Shown: positions 4,792-10,158 of the stretch, piece by piece
How positions within the stretch are numbered: position 1 is the first letter of the stretch
Layout of the letters: each line of letters begins with the position of its first letter
Assembly: GCA_005879535.1 (NCBI GenBank)
Contig: VBKI01000064.1
Span: forward strand, 139,895 to 203,894
Reading direction: 5' to 3'
Origin: Deltaproteobacteria bacterium
Lineage (GTDB): Bacteria; Myxococcota; Myxococcia; Myxococcales; 40CM-4-68-19
DNA: 64,000 nt
The notes under the pieces: model-generated
The model's input: only the letters and a program-made list of their open reading frames with translations
Told to the model about the DNA's origin: nothing
Database searches by the model: none
Translations under genes and position numbers: made by a program

Positions 4792-7700
4792 TCAATGAAA
4801 ATCGTGCGAGCGGATGTCGTACTCGATTGCCTCGTGCAGGCCCCAGAAGCGGTCACCCTTGACGCTGGTCACGCCGTCGTACGTCTCCAGGCGTCCCTCC
4901 ACGACGAGCAGTGAGCTGGCGAGGATGGGGCGGCGGTTCTTCTCGAATGTCGGGGGGTCGATGACGATGTTGGAAATGCCGGTCTCGTCCTCGAGCGAGA
5001 GGAAGACGAACCCCTTCGCCGTGCCGGGACGCTGGCGAACGATGCAGAGCCCCGCGGCCCGCACCCGGCGACTCCGGCGCAGCGTGGGGAGCTCGGCGGC
5101 GGAGTGGACGCCGAGGACGCGCAGGCGCTCGCGCTCCAGCGCGACCGGGTGCGGACCGACGGTCATGCCCGTGCCGCGCAGATCGGCGGCGATGCGATCG
5201 CGCAGGTCCATCTCGGGGAGCGGGCTGCGGCCGCGGTCGGGCGGCGGTTCGACTCGCCCCGGCAGTGGTTGCTCGCCGCGGACTTCCTCTCCGAAGGTCC
5301 GCAGCGCCTTCAACGCATGCTCCCGCGGATGCGCATTGATGTGCGCGAGGAGCGCGCCCTCCCGCTGCCTCTCGGGCGCGAGTGGCTTCTGGGGCGCGAG
5401 ACCTGTCCCACCGGCTACCATGTTGGCAGAGGGGTCCGACATCAGATCCTCGCGTGGCTCGATTCGGGCGAAGAGGCCGGGACCTCGCCGTGAGGCGGCC
5501 TCCGCTTGCCAGAGTGCGGCCCGCCGGGTGGGCAGCGCCCCTCCGGGGTGCATGGGCACCGAGGCGAGCGCGCCGATCTCCGCCAGCGCGGTCAGCTCGT
5601 CGCGGCGCAGCCTCGTCCGCGCCGCCAGATCGGCGATGCTCGCAAACGGCGCGCGGGCGCGTTCCTCGACGATCTTCTTTCCCACCGTCTCCCGCAGCCC
5701 GCGCGCGTACCGCAGCCCGAGTCGCAGTCGCAGCTCCTCCTCCGGTCCGGTCCGCTCCAGCGTGCACAGCCAATCGCTGCGGGCCGCGTCGATGGGCTTC
5801 ACCCGCACCCCGCGCCGCTGCGCGTCCTTCACCAGCGTGGCAGGGCTGTAGAAGCCCATCGGCCAGCAGTTGAGCATCGCCGCGTAGAACGCCTGCGGAT
5901 GGTGCACCTTGAGGTACGCGCTGGCGTAGACGATCAGCGCGAACGACGCCGCGTGGCTCTCGGGAAATCCGTAGAGCGCGAACGAGGTGATGCTCTGCAC
6001 GATCTCGTCCTGCGCCTTGGGCGCGATCCCGTTCGCCGTCATTCCCGCGCGCAGCCGCTCCTCGATGTGCTTCATCCGCTCTACGCTGCGCTTGCTGCCC
6101 ATGGCCCGCCGCAGCTCGTCGGCCTCGCCGCCGGTGAAGTTCGCCGCGGTCATGGCGATGCGCATGAGCTGCTCCTGGAAGAGCGGCACCCCGAGCGTCC
6201 GCTTCAGCACCGGCCAGAGCGACGGATGGGGCACCGAGGGTTTCTCCCGCCCGGCGCGCCGCTCCAGGTACGGGTTGACCATCTGCCCGACGATCGGTCC
6301 GGGCCGGATGATCGCCACCTCCACCACGATGTCGTAGAAATGGTCGGGGCGCATGCGCGGCAGCGTGGCCATCTGCGCGCGCGACTCCACCTGGAAGACG
6401 CCGATGGTGTCCGCCGTCTGCAGCAGCCGATAGACACCGGGGTCGTCGGGCGGAAGCTGCGCCAGATCGAGCTCGACGCCTTCGTGTCCGCGGACCAGCG
6501 GAATGGCCTGCTCGAGCACCGCCATCATCCCCAGCCCGAGCAGGTCGATCTTGATGATGCCCAGATCGGCGCAGTCGTCCTTGTCCCACTGCACCACCGC
6601 CCGGCCGGGCATCGAGGCGGGCTCGAGCGGAACGATCTCGTCGAGCCGCCCGCGGGCGATGACCATCCCGCCCGAGTGCTGGCCGAGATGCCGCGGCAGG
6701 CCGGCGATCTGCTGGCAGAGCTGGAGGTACAAGGCCACCCGCCTGTCGCCGGTGGCGAGCCCCGCCTCGCGCGCCCGGTGCTGGAGCGAATCGTAGTCGG
6801 TGATGAACTCGAATTGCGGGAGCAGCTTCGAGATCCGGTCCAACTCCTCCTGCGGGAGTCCGAGGACCTTGCCGATCTCCCGCGAGGCGGAGCGGGCGCG
6901 GTAGGTGATCACGTTGGCGGTCATCGCCGCCCCCACCGCTCCGTAGCGCTGGTAGACGTGCTGGATGACCTTCTCGCGCTGGTCGCCGCTGGGAAGATCG
7001 AGATCGATGTCCGGCCACGCCTTGTGCCCGGTTGCGTCGGTCCGTTCCTCGGAGAGGAAGCGTTCGAAGAGCAGGTTCATCCCCACCGGATCGACCGCGG
7101 TGATCCCCAGCGCGTAGCAGACGGCGCTGTTGGCCGCCGATCCGCGCCCTTGCACGAGCACGTTCTCCTGCCCGCAGAAGAGCACGAGGTCGTGCACGAT
7201 GAGGAAATACCCTGCGAGCCCGAGCCTCGCGATCAGCGCCAGCTCCCGCTCGAGCTGCGCCACGGCCTTCGGCCATCGCGAGCTGCCCGGGCCTCCGTAC
7301 CGCTTCGGCGCGACGTCCATGGTGCGGTGCCACAGCTCGCCGTCGAGCGAGGCGGCATGCAGGAACTGCGGCTCGGGCAGCTCGTACCCGAGATCGTCGA
7401 GGGTGTAGGCGCAGCGCTCCGCGATCTCGCGCGTCCGGCGGACTGCCTCCGGCAGATCCCGGAACAGCCTGGCCACCTCGGGCGGGGAGCGGACGTGCCG
7501 CTCGGCGTTGCGCGAGAGGCGCCGGCCCGCTTCGTCCAGCGTCGTCTTGAGGCGGATGCAGGTGAGCGCGTCGAACAAGGGCTTCCCTTGCGGCGCCGCG
7601 TGGCGCACCCCGGATCCGGCGACGATCCGCAGCCCTCGCGCCCGCGCGGCGTCGATCCGGCTGCGGTTCTCGCGCTCGCTGCGTGGATCGAGGTCGCGCC

Positions 7701-8433
7701 GGATTTCGGCAAAGAGCCGCTCGGTCCCGAGGTGGGCGGCGAGGACCATCAGGTGCTGCGGCTTGCCCGCGCTCAGCGCGACCAGCCCCTGCCGGAAGTC
7801 GGCGAGTTCCGCGGCAGTGACGGTGCACGCGTCCTTTCCCCCTTTGGCGTGGCCGAGCGTCAGCAGCCGGCAGAGGTTTTTGTATCCCGGGCGATCCTCG
7901 CAGAGCAGCGCCACCCGGCCGGCGCCCTCGACGTCGAGCTCGGCGCCGACCAGCGGCCGGACTCCTTGGCGGCGGGCGATCGCATGGAAGCGGGGGATGC
8001 CGTACAGACCGCCGACGTCCGCGAGACCGAAGACGGCATGTCCGGCGGCGGCCGCGGCGTGCGCGAGATCCTCCGGCAACGAGGAACCGCGGAGAAACGA
8101 GAACGCGCTCCGGGCATGGAGCTCGACGTAGTCGCAGGAGATGTCGGACCGGCGCGATACACTGATCACGGGCGGGGCACGCGGACCCCTGACTGTATCG
8201 ATCGCGTTCGCGCCCTCGTCGCCCGAGAGCACGCCAAACGGAACGAGTGAGGGCCGCGGGGCCGGGGTGTCCACCAGATCGTCCTGCGGAAACGGCGAGA
8301 GCTGCGCTTCGGGCGGCCGGCGCGCGTCGATGGCGAGCTGGATGGGACAGTCATCGTGCGACTTGCGCGGATCGCCCCGCGCCACCTCGCGCTTTGCCCT
8401 TGCCCTGCGCTCCTCGCGGGAAGGCCGTTTCAC
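4792..8433 (-). CDS. dnaE2: Error-prone DNA polymerase III alpha subunit DnaE2
   Basis: A 1213-residue C-family polymerase that carries out translesion synthesis with ImuA and ImuB. After a non-conserved charged extension of about 100 residues comes the PHP domain (YVELHARSAFSFLRGSS), then the palm (VQGRGSAANSAVCYALGI and the acidic WPDIDLDLPSGDQR), the fingers with YGFPESHAASFALIVYASAY, and a C-terminal OB fold. It ends in SHDFH, typical of DnaE2. The DnaE2 identity rather than replicative DnaE1 rests on the imuA-imuB context and that tail. The GTG start at 8433 overlaps the TGA of the preceding small frame (GTGA). Its message lies downstream of the LexA-like box before imuA. Confidence 0.95.
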   Translation of the reverse strand: MKRPSREERRARAKREVARGDPRKSHDDCPIQLAIDARRPPEAQLSPFPQDDLVDTPAPRPSLVPFGVLSGDEGANAIDTVRGPRAPPVISVSRRSDISCDYVELHARSAFSFLRGSSLPEDLAHAAAAAGHAVFGLADVGGLYGIPRFHAIARRQGVRPLVGAELDVEGAGRVALLCEDRPGYKNLCRLLTLGHAKGGKDACTVTAAELADFRQGLVALSAGKPQHLMVLAAHLGTERLFAEIRRDLDPRSERENRSRIDAARARGLRIVAGSGVRHAAPQGKPLFDALTCIRLKTTLDEAGRRLSRNAERHVRSPPEVARLFRDLPEAVRRTREIAERCAYTLDDLGYELPEPQFLHAASLDGELWHRTMDVAPKRYGGPGSSRWPKAVAQLERELALIARLGLAGYFLIVHDLVLFCGQENVLVQGRGSAANSAVCYALGITAVDPVGMNLLFERFLSEERTDATGHKAWPDIDLDLPSGDQREKVIQHVYQRYGAVGAAMTANVITYRARSASREIGKVLGLPQEELDRISKLLPQFEFITDYDSLQHRAREAGLATGDRRVALYLQLCQQIAGLPRHLGQHSGGMVIARGRLDEIVPLEPASMPGRAVVQWDKDDCADLGIIKIDLLGLGMMAVLEQAIPLVRGHEGVELDLAQLPPDDPGVYRLLQTADTIGVFQVESRAQMATLPRMRPDHFYDIVVEVAIIRPGPIVGQMVNPYLERRAGREKPSVPHPSLWPVLKRTLGVPLFQEQLMRIAMTAANFTGGEADELRRAMGSKRSVERMKHIEERLRAGMTANGIAPKAQDEIVQSITSFALYGFPESHAASFALIVYASAYLKVHHPQAFYAAMLNCWPMGFYSPATLVKDAQRRGVRVKPIDAARSDWLCTLERTGPEEELRLRLGLRYARGLRETVGKKIVEERARAPFASIADLAARTRLRRDELTALAEIGALASVPMHPGGALPTRRAALWQAEAASRRGPGLFARIEPREDLMSDPSANMVAGGTGLAPQKPLAPERQREGALLAHINAHPREHALKALRTFGEEVRGEQPLPGRVEPPPDRGRSPLPEMDLRDRIAADLRGTGMTVGPHPVALERERLRVLGVHSAAELPTLRRSRRVRAAGLCIVRQRPGTAKGFVFLSLEDETGISNIVIDPPTFEKNRRPILASSLLVVEGRLETYDGVTSVKGDRFWGLHEAIEYDIRSHDFH

Positions 8434-8636
8434 GGCGAGCCTCCAGCGAGCTCGTTCCGGGACGAGTTGAAGTGTTCACTTCCCAACTCGCCCCGGGGCG
8501 AGTTCAAGTGTTCACCAGTCGACTCGCCCCGGGGCGAGTCCGAGGCATCCCTGAGAATTTCCGGGCAGTTGGCGGTGCTTCGTGCGCCTGCTCGCGCCGC
8601 GGTCGTCAGCCGATCAGTCGTCAGCCGATCAGTCAT
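8430..8636 (-). CDS. Small palindrome-bearing reading frame linking imuB and dnaE2
   Basis: A 68-codon frame (starts MTDRLTTDRLTTAARAG) that fits exactly between its neighbours: its ATG overlaps the imuB stop by 8 bases and its TGA overlaps the dnaE2 GTG. The N-terminus has a five-residue duplication (TDRLT twice) and the C-terminal half repeats S-P-R-G-E, read from palindromic DNA. No known domain is recognised. It may be a translated spacer that keeps ribosomes moving from imuB to dnaE2, a small protein, or chance coding across a regulatory repeat. The exact fit at both ends favours translation, but there is no independent evidence of a functional product. Confidence 0.4.
   Translation of the reverse strand: MTDRLTTDRLTTAARAGARSTANCPEILRDASDSPRGESTGEHLNSPRGELGSEHFNSSRNELAGGSP
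8451..8540. repeat. Three palindromes at 36-base spacing between imuB and dnaE2
   Basis: Perfect 20-base palindromes lie at 8485-8504 (AACTCGCCCCGGGGCGAGTT) and 8521-8540 (GACTCGCCCCGGGGCGAGTC), with a decayed copy at 8451-8466 (CTCGTTCCGGGACGAG). Centres are 36.0 bases apart in both intervals. The first two copies are each followed by a shared spacer AAGTGTTCAC. Because 36 is a multiple of three, each copy is read in the same frame of the small ORF. In RNA each would form a strong stem, so the array could act on message stability, translation of dnaE2, or as dimeric protein sites in DNA. Confidence 0.85.
8605..8634. repeat. 15-base perfect tandem duplication across the imuB stop codon
   Basis: GTCAGCCGATCAGTC occurs twice without a gap, at 8605-8619 and 8620-8634. 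The second copy contains the imuB stop (TCA on the plus strand at 8629-8631), so the duplication lies across the end of imuB and the start of the small frame, where it encodes TDRLT twice. Confidence 0.9.
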
Positions 8637-10158
8637 AGACCGCCTCGATCCGCCAGGTGCCGGTGGCCAGCTCGCGTGCCGCCCGGATCAGGAGCCCTCC
8701 GGCCAACTCCAGGTCGTACGCGTCGAGCGCGAGCGGCGCGTCGGTCCACCATTCCGCGACCGTCCGCCACGGGCCGGCGCTGGCGACCACCCGCCCGCCC
8801 AGGGCGCCCTCGCCGATGACCAGCAGCGGCGTGCCGGCATCGTCGCAGCGCACCTCCGCCGTGCGCGGCGGGCGCAGCGCTCGCGCGGCGAGCGACAGCT
8901 CGATCTCTCCCGGAACCGCGATCCGCGGCGGCGGAGGTGGCGCGAACTTGCCGCATTCCGCGGCGAAGGGCGCCCACCGATCTGGTGCATGCGGCCGGCC
9001 GATCCGGTCGGGCCCGACCATTGCGGACAGCCGCGCCACCGCGGTTGCGAGCTGGGTCGGACTGGCGGCGCGCGGTCCGAAGAGCGGCATCTGCTCGAGC
9101 ACTTCGCGCGTGGGAACCGCCGAAAGCCGCACGGCGCGCACGCCGGCCATGGGCGGACGCGACTCGACCGACAGCCGCAGCAGCTGCAAAAGGGCGGCGG
9201 CCTCGCGTGTAGGCGCCGCAAGATCCAGCGCGCGCTCATCCCAGGAGCCGTCTGCAAGCCGCAGCTGCAGATCCATCTCCCGCGCCATCAGCCCGCGCGC
9301 AGAGAACCTTTGCGCCAGCCGATCGAGCAGCGCTTTCCAGACGAACAGCAACGGCTCCACCGAAGAGGCGTCCCACTCCAGCTCCTCTCCTTCCTCGAAC
9401 CGTTCCGGCTCCTCGCGCGACACCAGCGCAGATGCGTCTTCCCCTCGCGCCAACCGCGCCAGCAGCCCTGCTTCGGGCCCGAGCCGTGCCGCCAGCGGAC
9501 CCGGCGGAAGAGCACCGACTTCACCGAGCGTGTGCAGGCCGAAGCGGCGCAGCGATTCGAACAGCTCGTCGGGCAGCTCCAGCGCATGCAGCGGCAGCGC
9601 GGCGAGAAACTCGCGTTGCTCCTCGGCCGCGACCACGAGAAATGCTCCTCCGCCGGCGCCCCACCGCGTCTCCTCCAGCGTCAGGTCGGCGGAAGCCGCC
9701 CGCGCCGCGAGCCGGGCGACCGCCTTGCTCGAACCGAAGCCGACCGCAGCGCGAAGCCCGACGTGCTCCGCGGCGGCCACCAGCGCGCGAGCCACCGCGC
9801 GGTCGTCCCCGATCAACGATTCCAGCCCCGCTACGTCGAGGTAGACGAGTCCGGGCGCCGCCTCCTCGACGCGAGGCGACACCGCGGCTGCCGCCTCGCG
9901 TGCCGCCTGGGCCGCGGCCCTCTCCCGCTCGGGCGACGACTCGCGCGTGAGCAGCCGCGGACACGTCGCGCGCGCCTCCGCCAGCGTCTGCCCTGCTCCG
10001 ACGCCGTCGGCCGCTGGCGTCGCCCCGAGCACATGCGCGCGCCCGCCGAGATCGCGTCCCGCCTGGACCACGGCGAGCGGCTGGGAGCAGAGCTGCGGCT
10101 CCGCGCGCAGGGCGGCGACGAGCGGAAGGTCGGGAACCCAGAGGCAGGCGATCTTCAT
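8629..10158 (-). CDS. imuB: ImuB, catalytically inactive Y-family polymerase-like protein
   Basis: A 509-residue member of the Y-family fold that bridges DnaE2 and the sliding clamp in the SOS mutasome. The usual catalytic aspartate near the N-terminus is absent (MKIACLWVPDLP) and the SIDE motif is replaced by GLVYLDVAG, as expected for ImuB, so it should not polymerise. A likely beta-clamp motif, EQMPLFG, sits near residues 355-361, comparable to QLPLWG of mycobacterial ImuB. The ATG at 10158 is 9 bases after the imuA stop. The second half is poorly conserved in the family. Confidence 0.93.
   Translation of the reverse strand: MKIACLWVPDLPLVAALRAEPQLCSQPLAVVQAGRDLGGRAHVLGATPAADGVGAGQTLAEARATCPRLLTRESSPERERAAAQAAREAAAAVSPRVEEAAPGLVYLDVAGLESLIGDDRAVARALVAAAEHVGLRAAVGFGSSKAVARLAARAASADLTLEETRWGAGGGAFLVVAAEEQREFLAALPLHALELPDELFESLRRFGLHTLGEVGALPPGPLAARLGPEAGLLARLARGEDASALVSREEPERFEEGEELEWDASSVEPLLFVWKALLDRLAQRFSARGLMAREMDLQLRLADGSWDERALDLAAPTREAAALLQLLRLSVESRPPMAGVRAVRLSAVPTREVLEQMPLFGPRAASPTQLATAVARLSAMVGPDRIGRPHAPDRWAPFAAECGKFAPPPPPRIAVPGEIELSLAARALRPPRTAEVRCDDAGTPLLVIGEGALGGRVVASAGPWRTVAEWWTDAPLALDAYDLELAGGLLIRAARELATGTWRIEAVYD

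What the first reader, a model, noticed from the sequence alone, without database searches (positions are those of the whole stretch)
8430..8636. Three palindromes at exact 36-base spacing inside a small frame between imuB and dnaE2
Seen: two perfect 20-base palindromes and one decayed copy, centres 36.0 bases apart, lie in a 68-codon frame that overlaps the imuB stop by 8 bases and the dnaE2 GTG by GTGA. The period is a multiple of three, so all repeats are read in one frame. Known: in most genomes imuB and dnaE2 are simply adjacent. Inference: the array may be an RNA or protein-binding control element for dnaE2 translation, or a translated linker that keeps the two proteins in balance. This is the most unusual local structure in the window.
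Basis: partly seen in the sequence, partly recalled or inferred. Interest (0 to 1): 0.72.

Follow-up and report, generated by a model that had tools for sequence, protein, structure and literature searches.

The report
Dispersed HNH-linked palindromes splitting a mutasome operon
Three evenly spaced palindromes between two DNA-repair genes are one copy of a repeat scattered through this bacterium's genome and tied to an HNH-nuclease gene family, and the small reading frame that runs through them probably keeps translation of the two genes coupled.

Summary
In detail: two perfect 20-bp palindromes and one decayed copy, centres 36 bp apart, lie in a 68-codon frame joining imuB and dnaE2. The array is not a conserved dnaE2 control element. 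The same palindrome occurs at 11 places in this genome (about 20 copies, often in 36/37-bp arrays) and is absent from imuB-dnaE2 in all relatives examined, including the closest. Across 147 genomes of the class it tracks one subfamily of HNH-type nuclease genes (7 of 8 genomes with it, 1 of 139 without). Copies sit at the 3' end, in the linker, or 170-330 bp upstream of those genes. Some elements carry private palindromes: both copies in the genome belong to one HNH gene. This resembles the REP/RAYT arrangement, but with an HNH protein in place of a Y1 transposase. Mobilisation by the HNH protein is inferred, not shown. The small frame has its own explanation. Its ATG, inside the imuB stop, is dnaE2's own start where no insert is present. 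In four congeners with inserts (three kinds, unrelated in sequence) it stays open and ends exactly at GTGA on dnaE2, which points to a translational relay.

The parts
8521..8540 (.). perfect 20-bp palindrome, copy 1 in coding order (GACTCGCCCCGGGGCGAGTC)
   Evidence: member of genome-wide family
8485..8504 (.). perfect 20-bp palindrome, copy 2 (AACTCGCCCCGGGGCGAGTT), identical to 7 further exact copies elsewhere in the genome
8449..8468 (.). decayed third palindrome (AGCTCGTTCCGGGACGAGTT)
8473..8478 (+). TGTTCA core of spacer 1, shared with spacers at other arrays
8509..8514 (+). TGTTCA core of spacer 2
8430..8636 (-). 68-codon relay frame: ATG overlaps imuB stop (ATGACTGA), TGA overlaps dnaE2 GTG (GTGA)
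8602..8631 (-). 15-bp tandem duplication (2 x GTCGTCAGCCGATCA on +) at the upstream edge of the insert; five codons, keeps frame
8440..8444 (-). GGAGG Shine-Dalgarno-like motif before the dnaE2 GTG
8629..10158 (-). imuB; last codons contain GAGGCGGTCTATGACTGA, i.e. SD-like motif plus the relay ATG
4792..8433 (-). dnaE2

Best explanation
The array is a lineage-specific insertion of a dispersed palindromic repeat into the imuB-dnaE2 junction, which tolerates insertions. The repeat belongs to a system made of an HNH-type nuclease gene bounded by, or containing, copies of its own palindrome, plus many solo copies and 36-bp-unit arrays elsewhere. The most likely mechanism is that the HNH protein recognises the palindrome, perhaps through its helical N-terminal domain, and cuts, so that repair copying or transposition spreads it, as RAYT proteins are thought to do for REPs. 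Dispersal and the HNH link are shown; recognition and mobilisation are inferred. At this site the insert is held in a relay frame. Ribosomes finishing imuB restart at the overlapping ATG, read through the insert, and stop on GTGA at the dnaE2 start, which preserves the start-stop coupling seen in insert-free relatives (inferred from frame conservation).
For: Dispersal: 22 sites with up to 3 mismatches in G000 against 0 for the control; about 20 genuine copies at 11 places, none inside a long predicted gene except the HNH tail. HNH link: in G007 most palindromes lie at HNH 3' ends (P about 1e-52 under uniform placement, not corrected for shared descent). G000's only close HNH gene (C58:32121-33374) has one copy 175 bp upstream and two at its 3' end (P 6e-6). 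Presence across the class: 7/8 against 1/139, Fisher P 2.5e-10. Private palindromes: ACACGCCCCGGGGCGTGT occurs twice in G008, flanking one HNH gene; ACTGATCCCGGGATCAGT occurs twice in G060, upstream of and inside one HNH gene. Both arms change together (ACTCGCCCCGGGGCGAGT, ACTTGTCCCGGGACAAGT, ACTTGTTCCGGAACAAGT) and copies occur in different reading frames, so peptide constraint does not explain it. Invariant D364-H365, C345/C355/C384, H387 fit an HNH nuclease, with weak PDB similarity to the Cas9 HNH domain, E 0.0016. Relay: G000, G002, G003, G004 frames open with 0 stops, the other two frames closed in all four, all ending at GTGA; insert-free G001, G006, G008, G011 use the same ATG for dnaE2; SD-like motifs precede both starts.
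Against: No transposition event, target-site duplication or empty-site pair was demonstrated. Many HNH genes of the family lack a recognisable palindrome and more distant HNH genes showed no matching flanking pair. G000 has one HNH gene but many solo copies. The HNH protein gives no Pfam match above cut-off. For the relay, P(open) by chance is 0.28-0.63 per insert (product 0.023, or about 0.0003 with phase); G002 and G003 inserts are related and the phase may be inherited, so the support is moderate.
Confidence: 0.58

Rival explanations
1. The palindromes are operators: the HNH protein (or a partner) binds them to repress its own gene, and the solo arrays form a regulon that happens to include dnaE2.
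For: Copies 170-330 bp upstream of HNH starts; perfect dyads with arms changing together; AF2 model of the N-terminal domain (pLDDT 95) finds only ParB/Noc DNA-binding domains among credible PDB hits (prob about 0.85, E about 1).
Against: Most copies in G007 are at HNH 3' ends, not promoters; solo arrays are not fixed upstream of genes; dnaE2 relatives lack them; fold matches are not significant by E-value.
Confidence: 0.17
2. A dedicated cis-acting RNA or DNA element regulating dnaE2.
For: Location at the junction; the two palindromes pair into one long hairpin, z -6.2.
Against: Absent from every relative's junction; dispersed genome-wide; no Rfam family (only chance miRNA matches); the paper read on the M. 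xanthus damage regulators DdiA and LexA mentions no palindrome or consensus site.
Confidence: 0.12
3. A classical REP family mobilised by RAYT (Y1_Tnp) proteins.
For: G000 has four Y1_Tnp genes and relatives have more; REP-like size and dispersal.
Against: None of the 14 Y1_Tnp loci examined is flanked by the palindrome as a perfect dyad; two G007 palindromes lie within about 1 kb of a Y1_Tnp gene but not at its ends; no GTAG or CGTC tag and a fully paired dyad.
Confidence: 0.06
4. An IS-like target-site effect: HNH elements insert into pre-existing palindromes and duplicate them, so the palindromes are targets rather than parts of the element.
For: Identical copies on both sides in G000 C58 and G008 C60.
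Against: In G060 and G104 a copy lies inside the HNH reading frame; private palindromes have no other copy in the genome.
Confidence: 0.07

Closest known systems
REP/REPIN repeats with RAYT (TnpA-REP) genes, 'REPtrons' (PMC2817692, PMC8266576, PMC3116915)
   Same: Short palindromes dispersed between genes, present as solo copies and arrays, and flanking a nuclease-like gene; arms change together between genomes.
   Different: The linked gene is HNH-type, not Y1/HUH; no GTAG or CGTC tag; perfect dyad without a non-complementary middle; about 20 copies instead of hundreds; palindromes also lie inside the gene.
CGTC-tagged REPs without a known transposase (PMC3733652)
   Same: Dispersed palindromes, some inside genes.
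   Different: No unpaired CGTC tag, and here a candidate partner gene is identified.
Proliferated HNH families such as DUF222/REP13E12 of mycobacteria (named in PMC10589994)
   Same: HNH genes in many copies per genome (G007, G003, G104), with an alpha-helical N-terminal domain.
   Different: No Pfam DUF222 match; linked palindromes are, to my knowledge, not described there.
Palindromic elements of organelle genomes (Volvox palindromic repeats, PMC2670323; yeast mitochondrial mobile DNA family, PMC4478555)
   Same: Selfish short repeats spread through non-coding DNA (abstracts only read).
   Different: Organelle genomes; no paired HNH gene with private palindromes known to me.
Translational coupling by start-stop overlap (reviewed in PMC12548453)
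   Same: ATGACTGA and GTGA overlaps between consecutive frames with SD-like motifs.
   Different: Here a small frame made of inserted repeat DNA bridges two overlaps.

Membership tests
REP/RAYT (REPtron) | Short palindromic repeat dispersed in intergenic DNA | tested here: met
   11 places, about 20 copies
REP/RAYT (REPtron) | Unpaired GTAG (or CGTC) tag at one end of the palindrome | tested here: not met
   palindrome is fully paired; no common tag in flanks of the copies
REP/RAYT (REPtron) | RAYT (Y1_Tnp) gene flanked by the repeat | tested here: not met
   14 Y1_Tnp loci without a flanking perfect palindrome of this family
REP/RAYT (REPtron) | Cleavage of the repeat by the partner enzyme | not testable with these tools
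   needs biochemistry
CRISPR array | Identical repeats separated by unique spacers of similar length, next to cas genes | tested here: not met
   18-19-bp spacers mostly share a TGTTCA core; up to three units, dispersed over 11 places; cas genes not searched
HNH nuclease | HNH (beta-beta-alpha-metal) motif with catalytic His/Asn and zinc Cys | tested here: met
   invariant D364, H365, H387 and C345/C355/C384, N388 nearly invariant; Cas9 HNH match E 0.0016; PF01844 reached only E 0.037 in 3 of 12 members
IscB / RNA-guided HNH | RuvC halves around HNH and an omega RNA | tested here: inconclusive
   one member matches guided_IscB at E 0.08 only; no RuvC match; omega RNA not sought
Translationally coupled gene pair | Stop codon of upstream frame overlaps or adjoins the next start | tested here: met
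   ATGACTGA and GTGA in G000, G002, G003, G004
Translationally coupled gene pair | Expression of the second gene depends on translation of the first | not testable with these tools
   needs reporters or Ribo-seq

The most novel reading that the evidence does not exclude
A REPtron-like mobile system in which an HNH nuclease, not an HUH transposase, recognises and spreads its own short palindrome. Each lineage of the gene carries a private matching palindrome, and solo copies are distributed through the host genome.
Probability: 0.36. Interest if true: 0.82.

Novelty: new variant of a known kind. Interest (0 to 1): 0.6.

Why it matters
Some dispersed bacterial palindromes have no known mobiliser (the CGTC REPs, PMC3733652). 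A consistent link between one HNH subfamily and a covarying, sometimes private palindrome gives a concrete enzyme-substrate pair to test. It would add HNH proteins to the short list of enzymes able to seed REP-like DNA. At the imuB-dnaE2 site it also shows how a mutagenesis operon may tolerate repeat insertions: the insert is read through as a relay frame that keeps the genes coupled.

Tried and rejected
RAYT-linked REP: 14 Y1_Tnp loci scanned, none flanked by the palindrome. Chance: the reversed-pattern control gives 0. Conserved dnaE2 element: junctions of relatives compared, array absent. Peptide-level cause of the palindrome at HNH C-termini: different reading frames or positions in G000 (TRPGAS), G104 (NSPRGE) and G060 (TDPGIS, in the linker), so rejected. 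The copies inside HNH genes of G002/G003 (ACTTGTTCCGGAACAAGT at DLFRNKL) lie in conserved coding sequence and may be one chance or conversion event inherited by descent; not used as evidence. Sites in L021-L024 with 2-3 mismatches mostly lie in coding sequence and are treated as chance. Rfam: nothing meaningful. First exact 29-mer scan of genome contigs: 0 hits. Full-length AF2 model of the HNH protein: poor (pLDDT 58); the N-domain model is good, but its PDB matches to ParB/Noc have E about 1, so only a lead. A perfect flanking pair of identical palindromes was found for three elements only. Junctions in other families of the order: imuB and dnaE2 mostly adjacent or overlapping, no further inserts for the relay test.

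Full report
Observation. On the + strand two perfect 20-bp palindromes (8485-8504, 8521-8540) and a decayed one (8449-8468) have centres exactly 36 bp apart. They are the only perfect palindromes of at least 20 bp in the window.

The repeat is dispersed. A search of the window's own genome (G000, 5.16 Mb, 118 contigs) with AACTCGCCCCGGGGCGAGTT at up to 3 mismatches gives 22 sites, against 0 for the reversed control. After setting aside four single sites that mostly lie in coding sequence, and counting the decayed window copy, about 20 copies remain at 11 places, none inside a long predicted gene apart from the HNH tail described below. Six of these places, and one HNH 3' end, are arrays with 36- or 37-bp period; most of the 18-19-bp spacers share a TGTTCA core. 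The period is therefore a property of the repeat unit, not of the imuB-dnaE2 reading frame.

It is not conserved at imuB-dnaE2. The junction was recovered in nine relatives. The closest (G006, ImuB 86% identical), G001, G008 and G011 have no insert. G002 and G003 have a different hairpin repeat (CACCGCGGAGGCGCGGAGAGC type), G004 a third sequence with an A/T hairpin, and G007 a Y1_Tnp gene in place of the array. The G010 junction is rearranged.

Link to HNH genes. Related palindromes exist in the same family with both arms changed together: ACTTGTCCCGGGACAAGT in G007 and G002, ACTTGTTCCGGAACAAGT and ACTTGTCCTAGGACAAGT in G003. In G007 most palindromes lie in the last codons of, or directly behind, genes of one protein family. 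The G000 member (P0001, 418 aa) is the only close one in its genome; it has a palindrome 175 bp upstream and two at its 3' end. The family has invariant HNH-type residues and a weak profile match to the Cas9 HNH domain, but no Pfam hit above cut-off. In the 147 genomes held for the class, the degenerate palindrome ACTYGYCCCGGGRCRAGT occurs in 7 of the 8 genomes with a close HNH member (50% identity or more, a cut-off chosen after seeing the list) and in 1 of 139 others (Fisher P 2.5e-10).

Private palindromes. In G008 the only two copies of ACACGCCCCGGGGCGTGT flank one HNH gene 1301 bp apart. In G060, a distant genome (HNH 39% identical), the only two copies of ACTGATCCCGGGATCAGT lie 326 bp upstream of the HNH match and inside the gene's linker. 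In G104 (the genome of L210, titled Myxococcales) copies occur in an HNH linker, at an HNH 3' end in another reading frame, and solo. Different frames and both-arm changes argue that the DNA (or RNA) palindrome, not the peptide, is maintained. Several G007 copies keep the 5' region and the last codons but lack most of the gene, like internal-deletion derivatives, and many contigs of G007 and G104 end inside these genes, as expected for recent multicopy elements.

Mechanism. The arrangement resembles RAYT genes flanked by REPs with solo REPs elsewhere (PMC2817692, PMC8266576), but with an HNH protein. RAYTs of these genomes are not flanked by the palindrome, and the GTAG or CGTC tag is missing, so it is not filed as a REP/RAYT system. 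The N-terminal domain is predicted with high confidence as an all-helical domain (pLDDT 95); its best fold matches are ParB and Noc DNA-binding domains, which read palindromes, but with E about 1. That is a lead for palindrome recognition, not a demonstration.

The small frame. Where there is no insert, dnaE2 begins at the ATG inside the imuB stop, ATGACTGA, behind a GAGG motif in the last imuB codons. In G000, G002, G003 and G004 the insert pushes dnaE2 to a downstream GTG with its own SD-like motif. In all four the frame from the old ATG stays open (68, 44, 48, 47 codons) and ends with TGA on that GTG (GTGA), while the other two frames contain stops. Chance of openness is 0.28-0.63 per insert; the product is 0.023, or about 0.0003 with phase. 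This overstates independence because the G002 and G003 inserts are related and the phase may be inherited. I read this as selection to keep translational coupling across inserts, with moderate confidence. A 15-bp tandem duplication at 8602-8631 also keeps the frame.

Limits. Most genomes are metagenomic assemblies; the HNH cut-off was chosen after inspection; no mobility event was observed; the literature search covered open PMC papers only and found no description of an HNH-linked palindrome family.

Noticed in passing
L137, L138 (G003, G002 imuB-dnaE2 junction): A different hairpin repeat (CACCGCGGAGGCGCGGAGAGCGCAGAGG type) occupies the same junction, and G004 has a third insert: the junction collects repeats.
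   Followed up: partly
L140 (G007 C118): A Y1_Tnp (RAYT-like) gene lies directly behind imuB where dnaE2 is expected.
   Followed up: no
L013, L016, L018, L025, L231, L237, L056: A second, smaller palindrome (TTCARCCGGYTGAA in G000/G006, CAGCCGCGGCTG in G104, GAGCCGGCTC in G007) often lies within about 25 bp of the first: a possible double-palindrome element.
   Followed up: no
L080, L085, L087, L090, L091: A perfect palindrome ACTTGTTCCGGAACAAGT lies within conserved HNH coding sequence (DLFRNKL) in G002 and G003 without any insertion.
   Followed up: partly
G033, G035, G043, G053, G066: More distant members (about 30-36% identity) of the HNH family are present in ten or more copies per genome in another family of the order; the few loci scanned had no matching palindrome pair.
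   Followed up: partly
L136 (G006 C461): The G006 dnaE2 start lacks the MKRPSREE... N-terminus and is fused directly to the imuB-overlapping ATG, suggesting deletion of an earlier insert.
   Followed up: no
window 3074, 3830, 16536: Three other perfect palindromes of at least 18 bp in the window, unrelated in position to this array; order-2 Markov sequence gives 1.4 on average.
   Followed up: no
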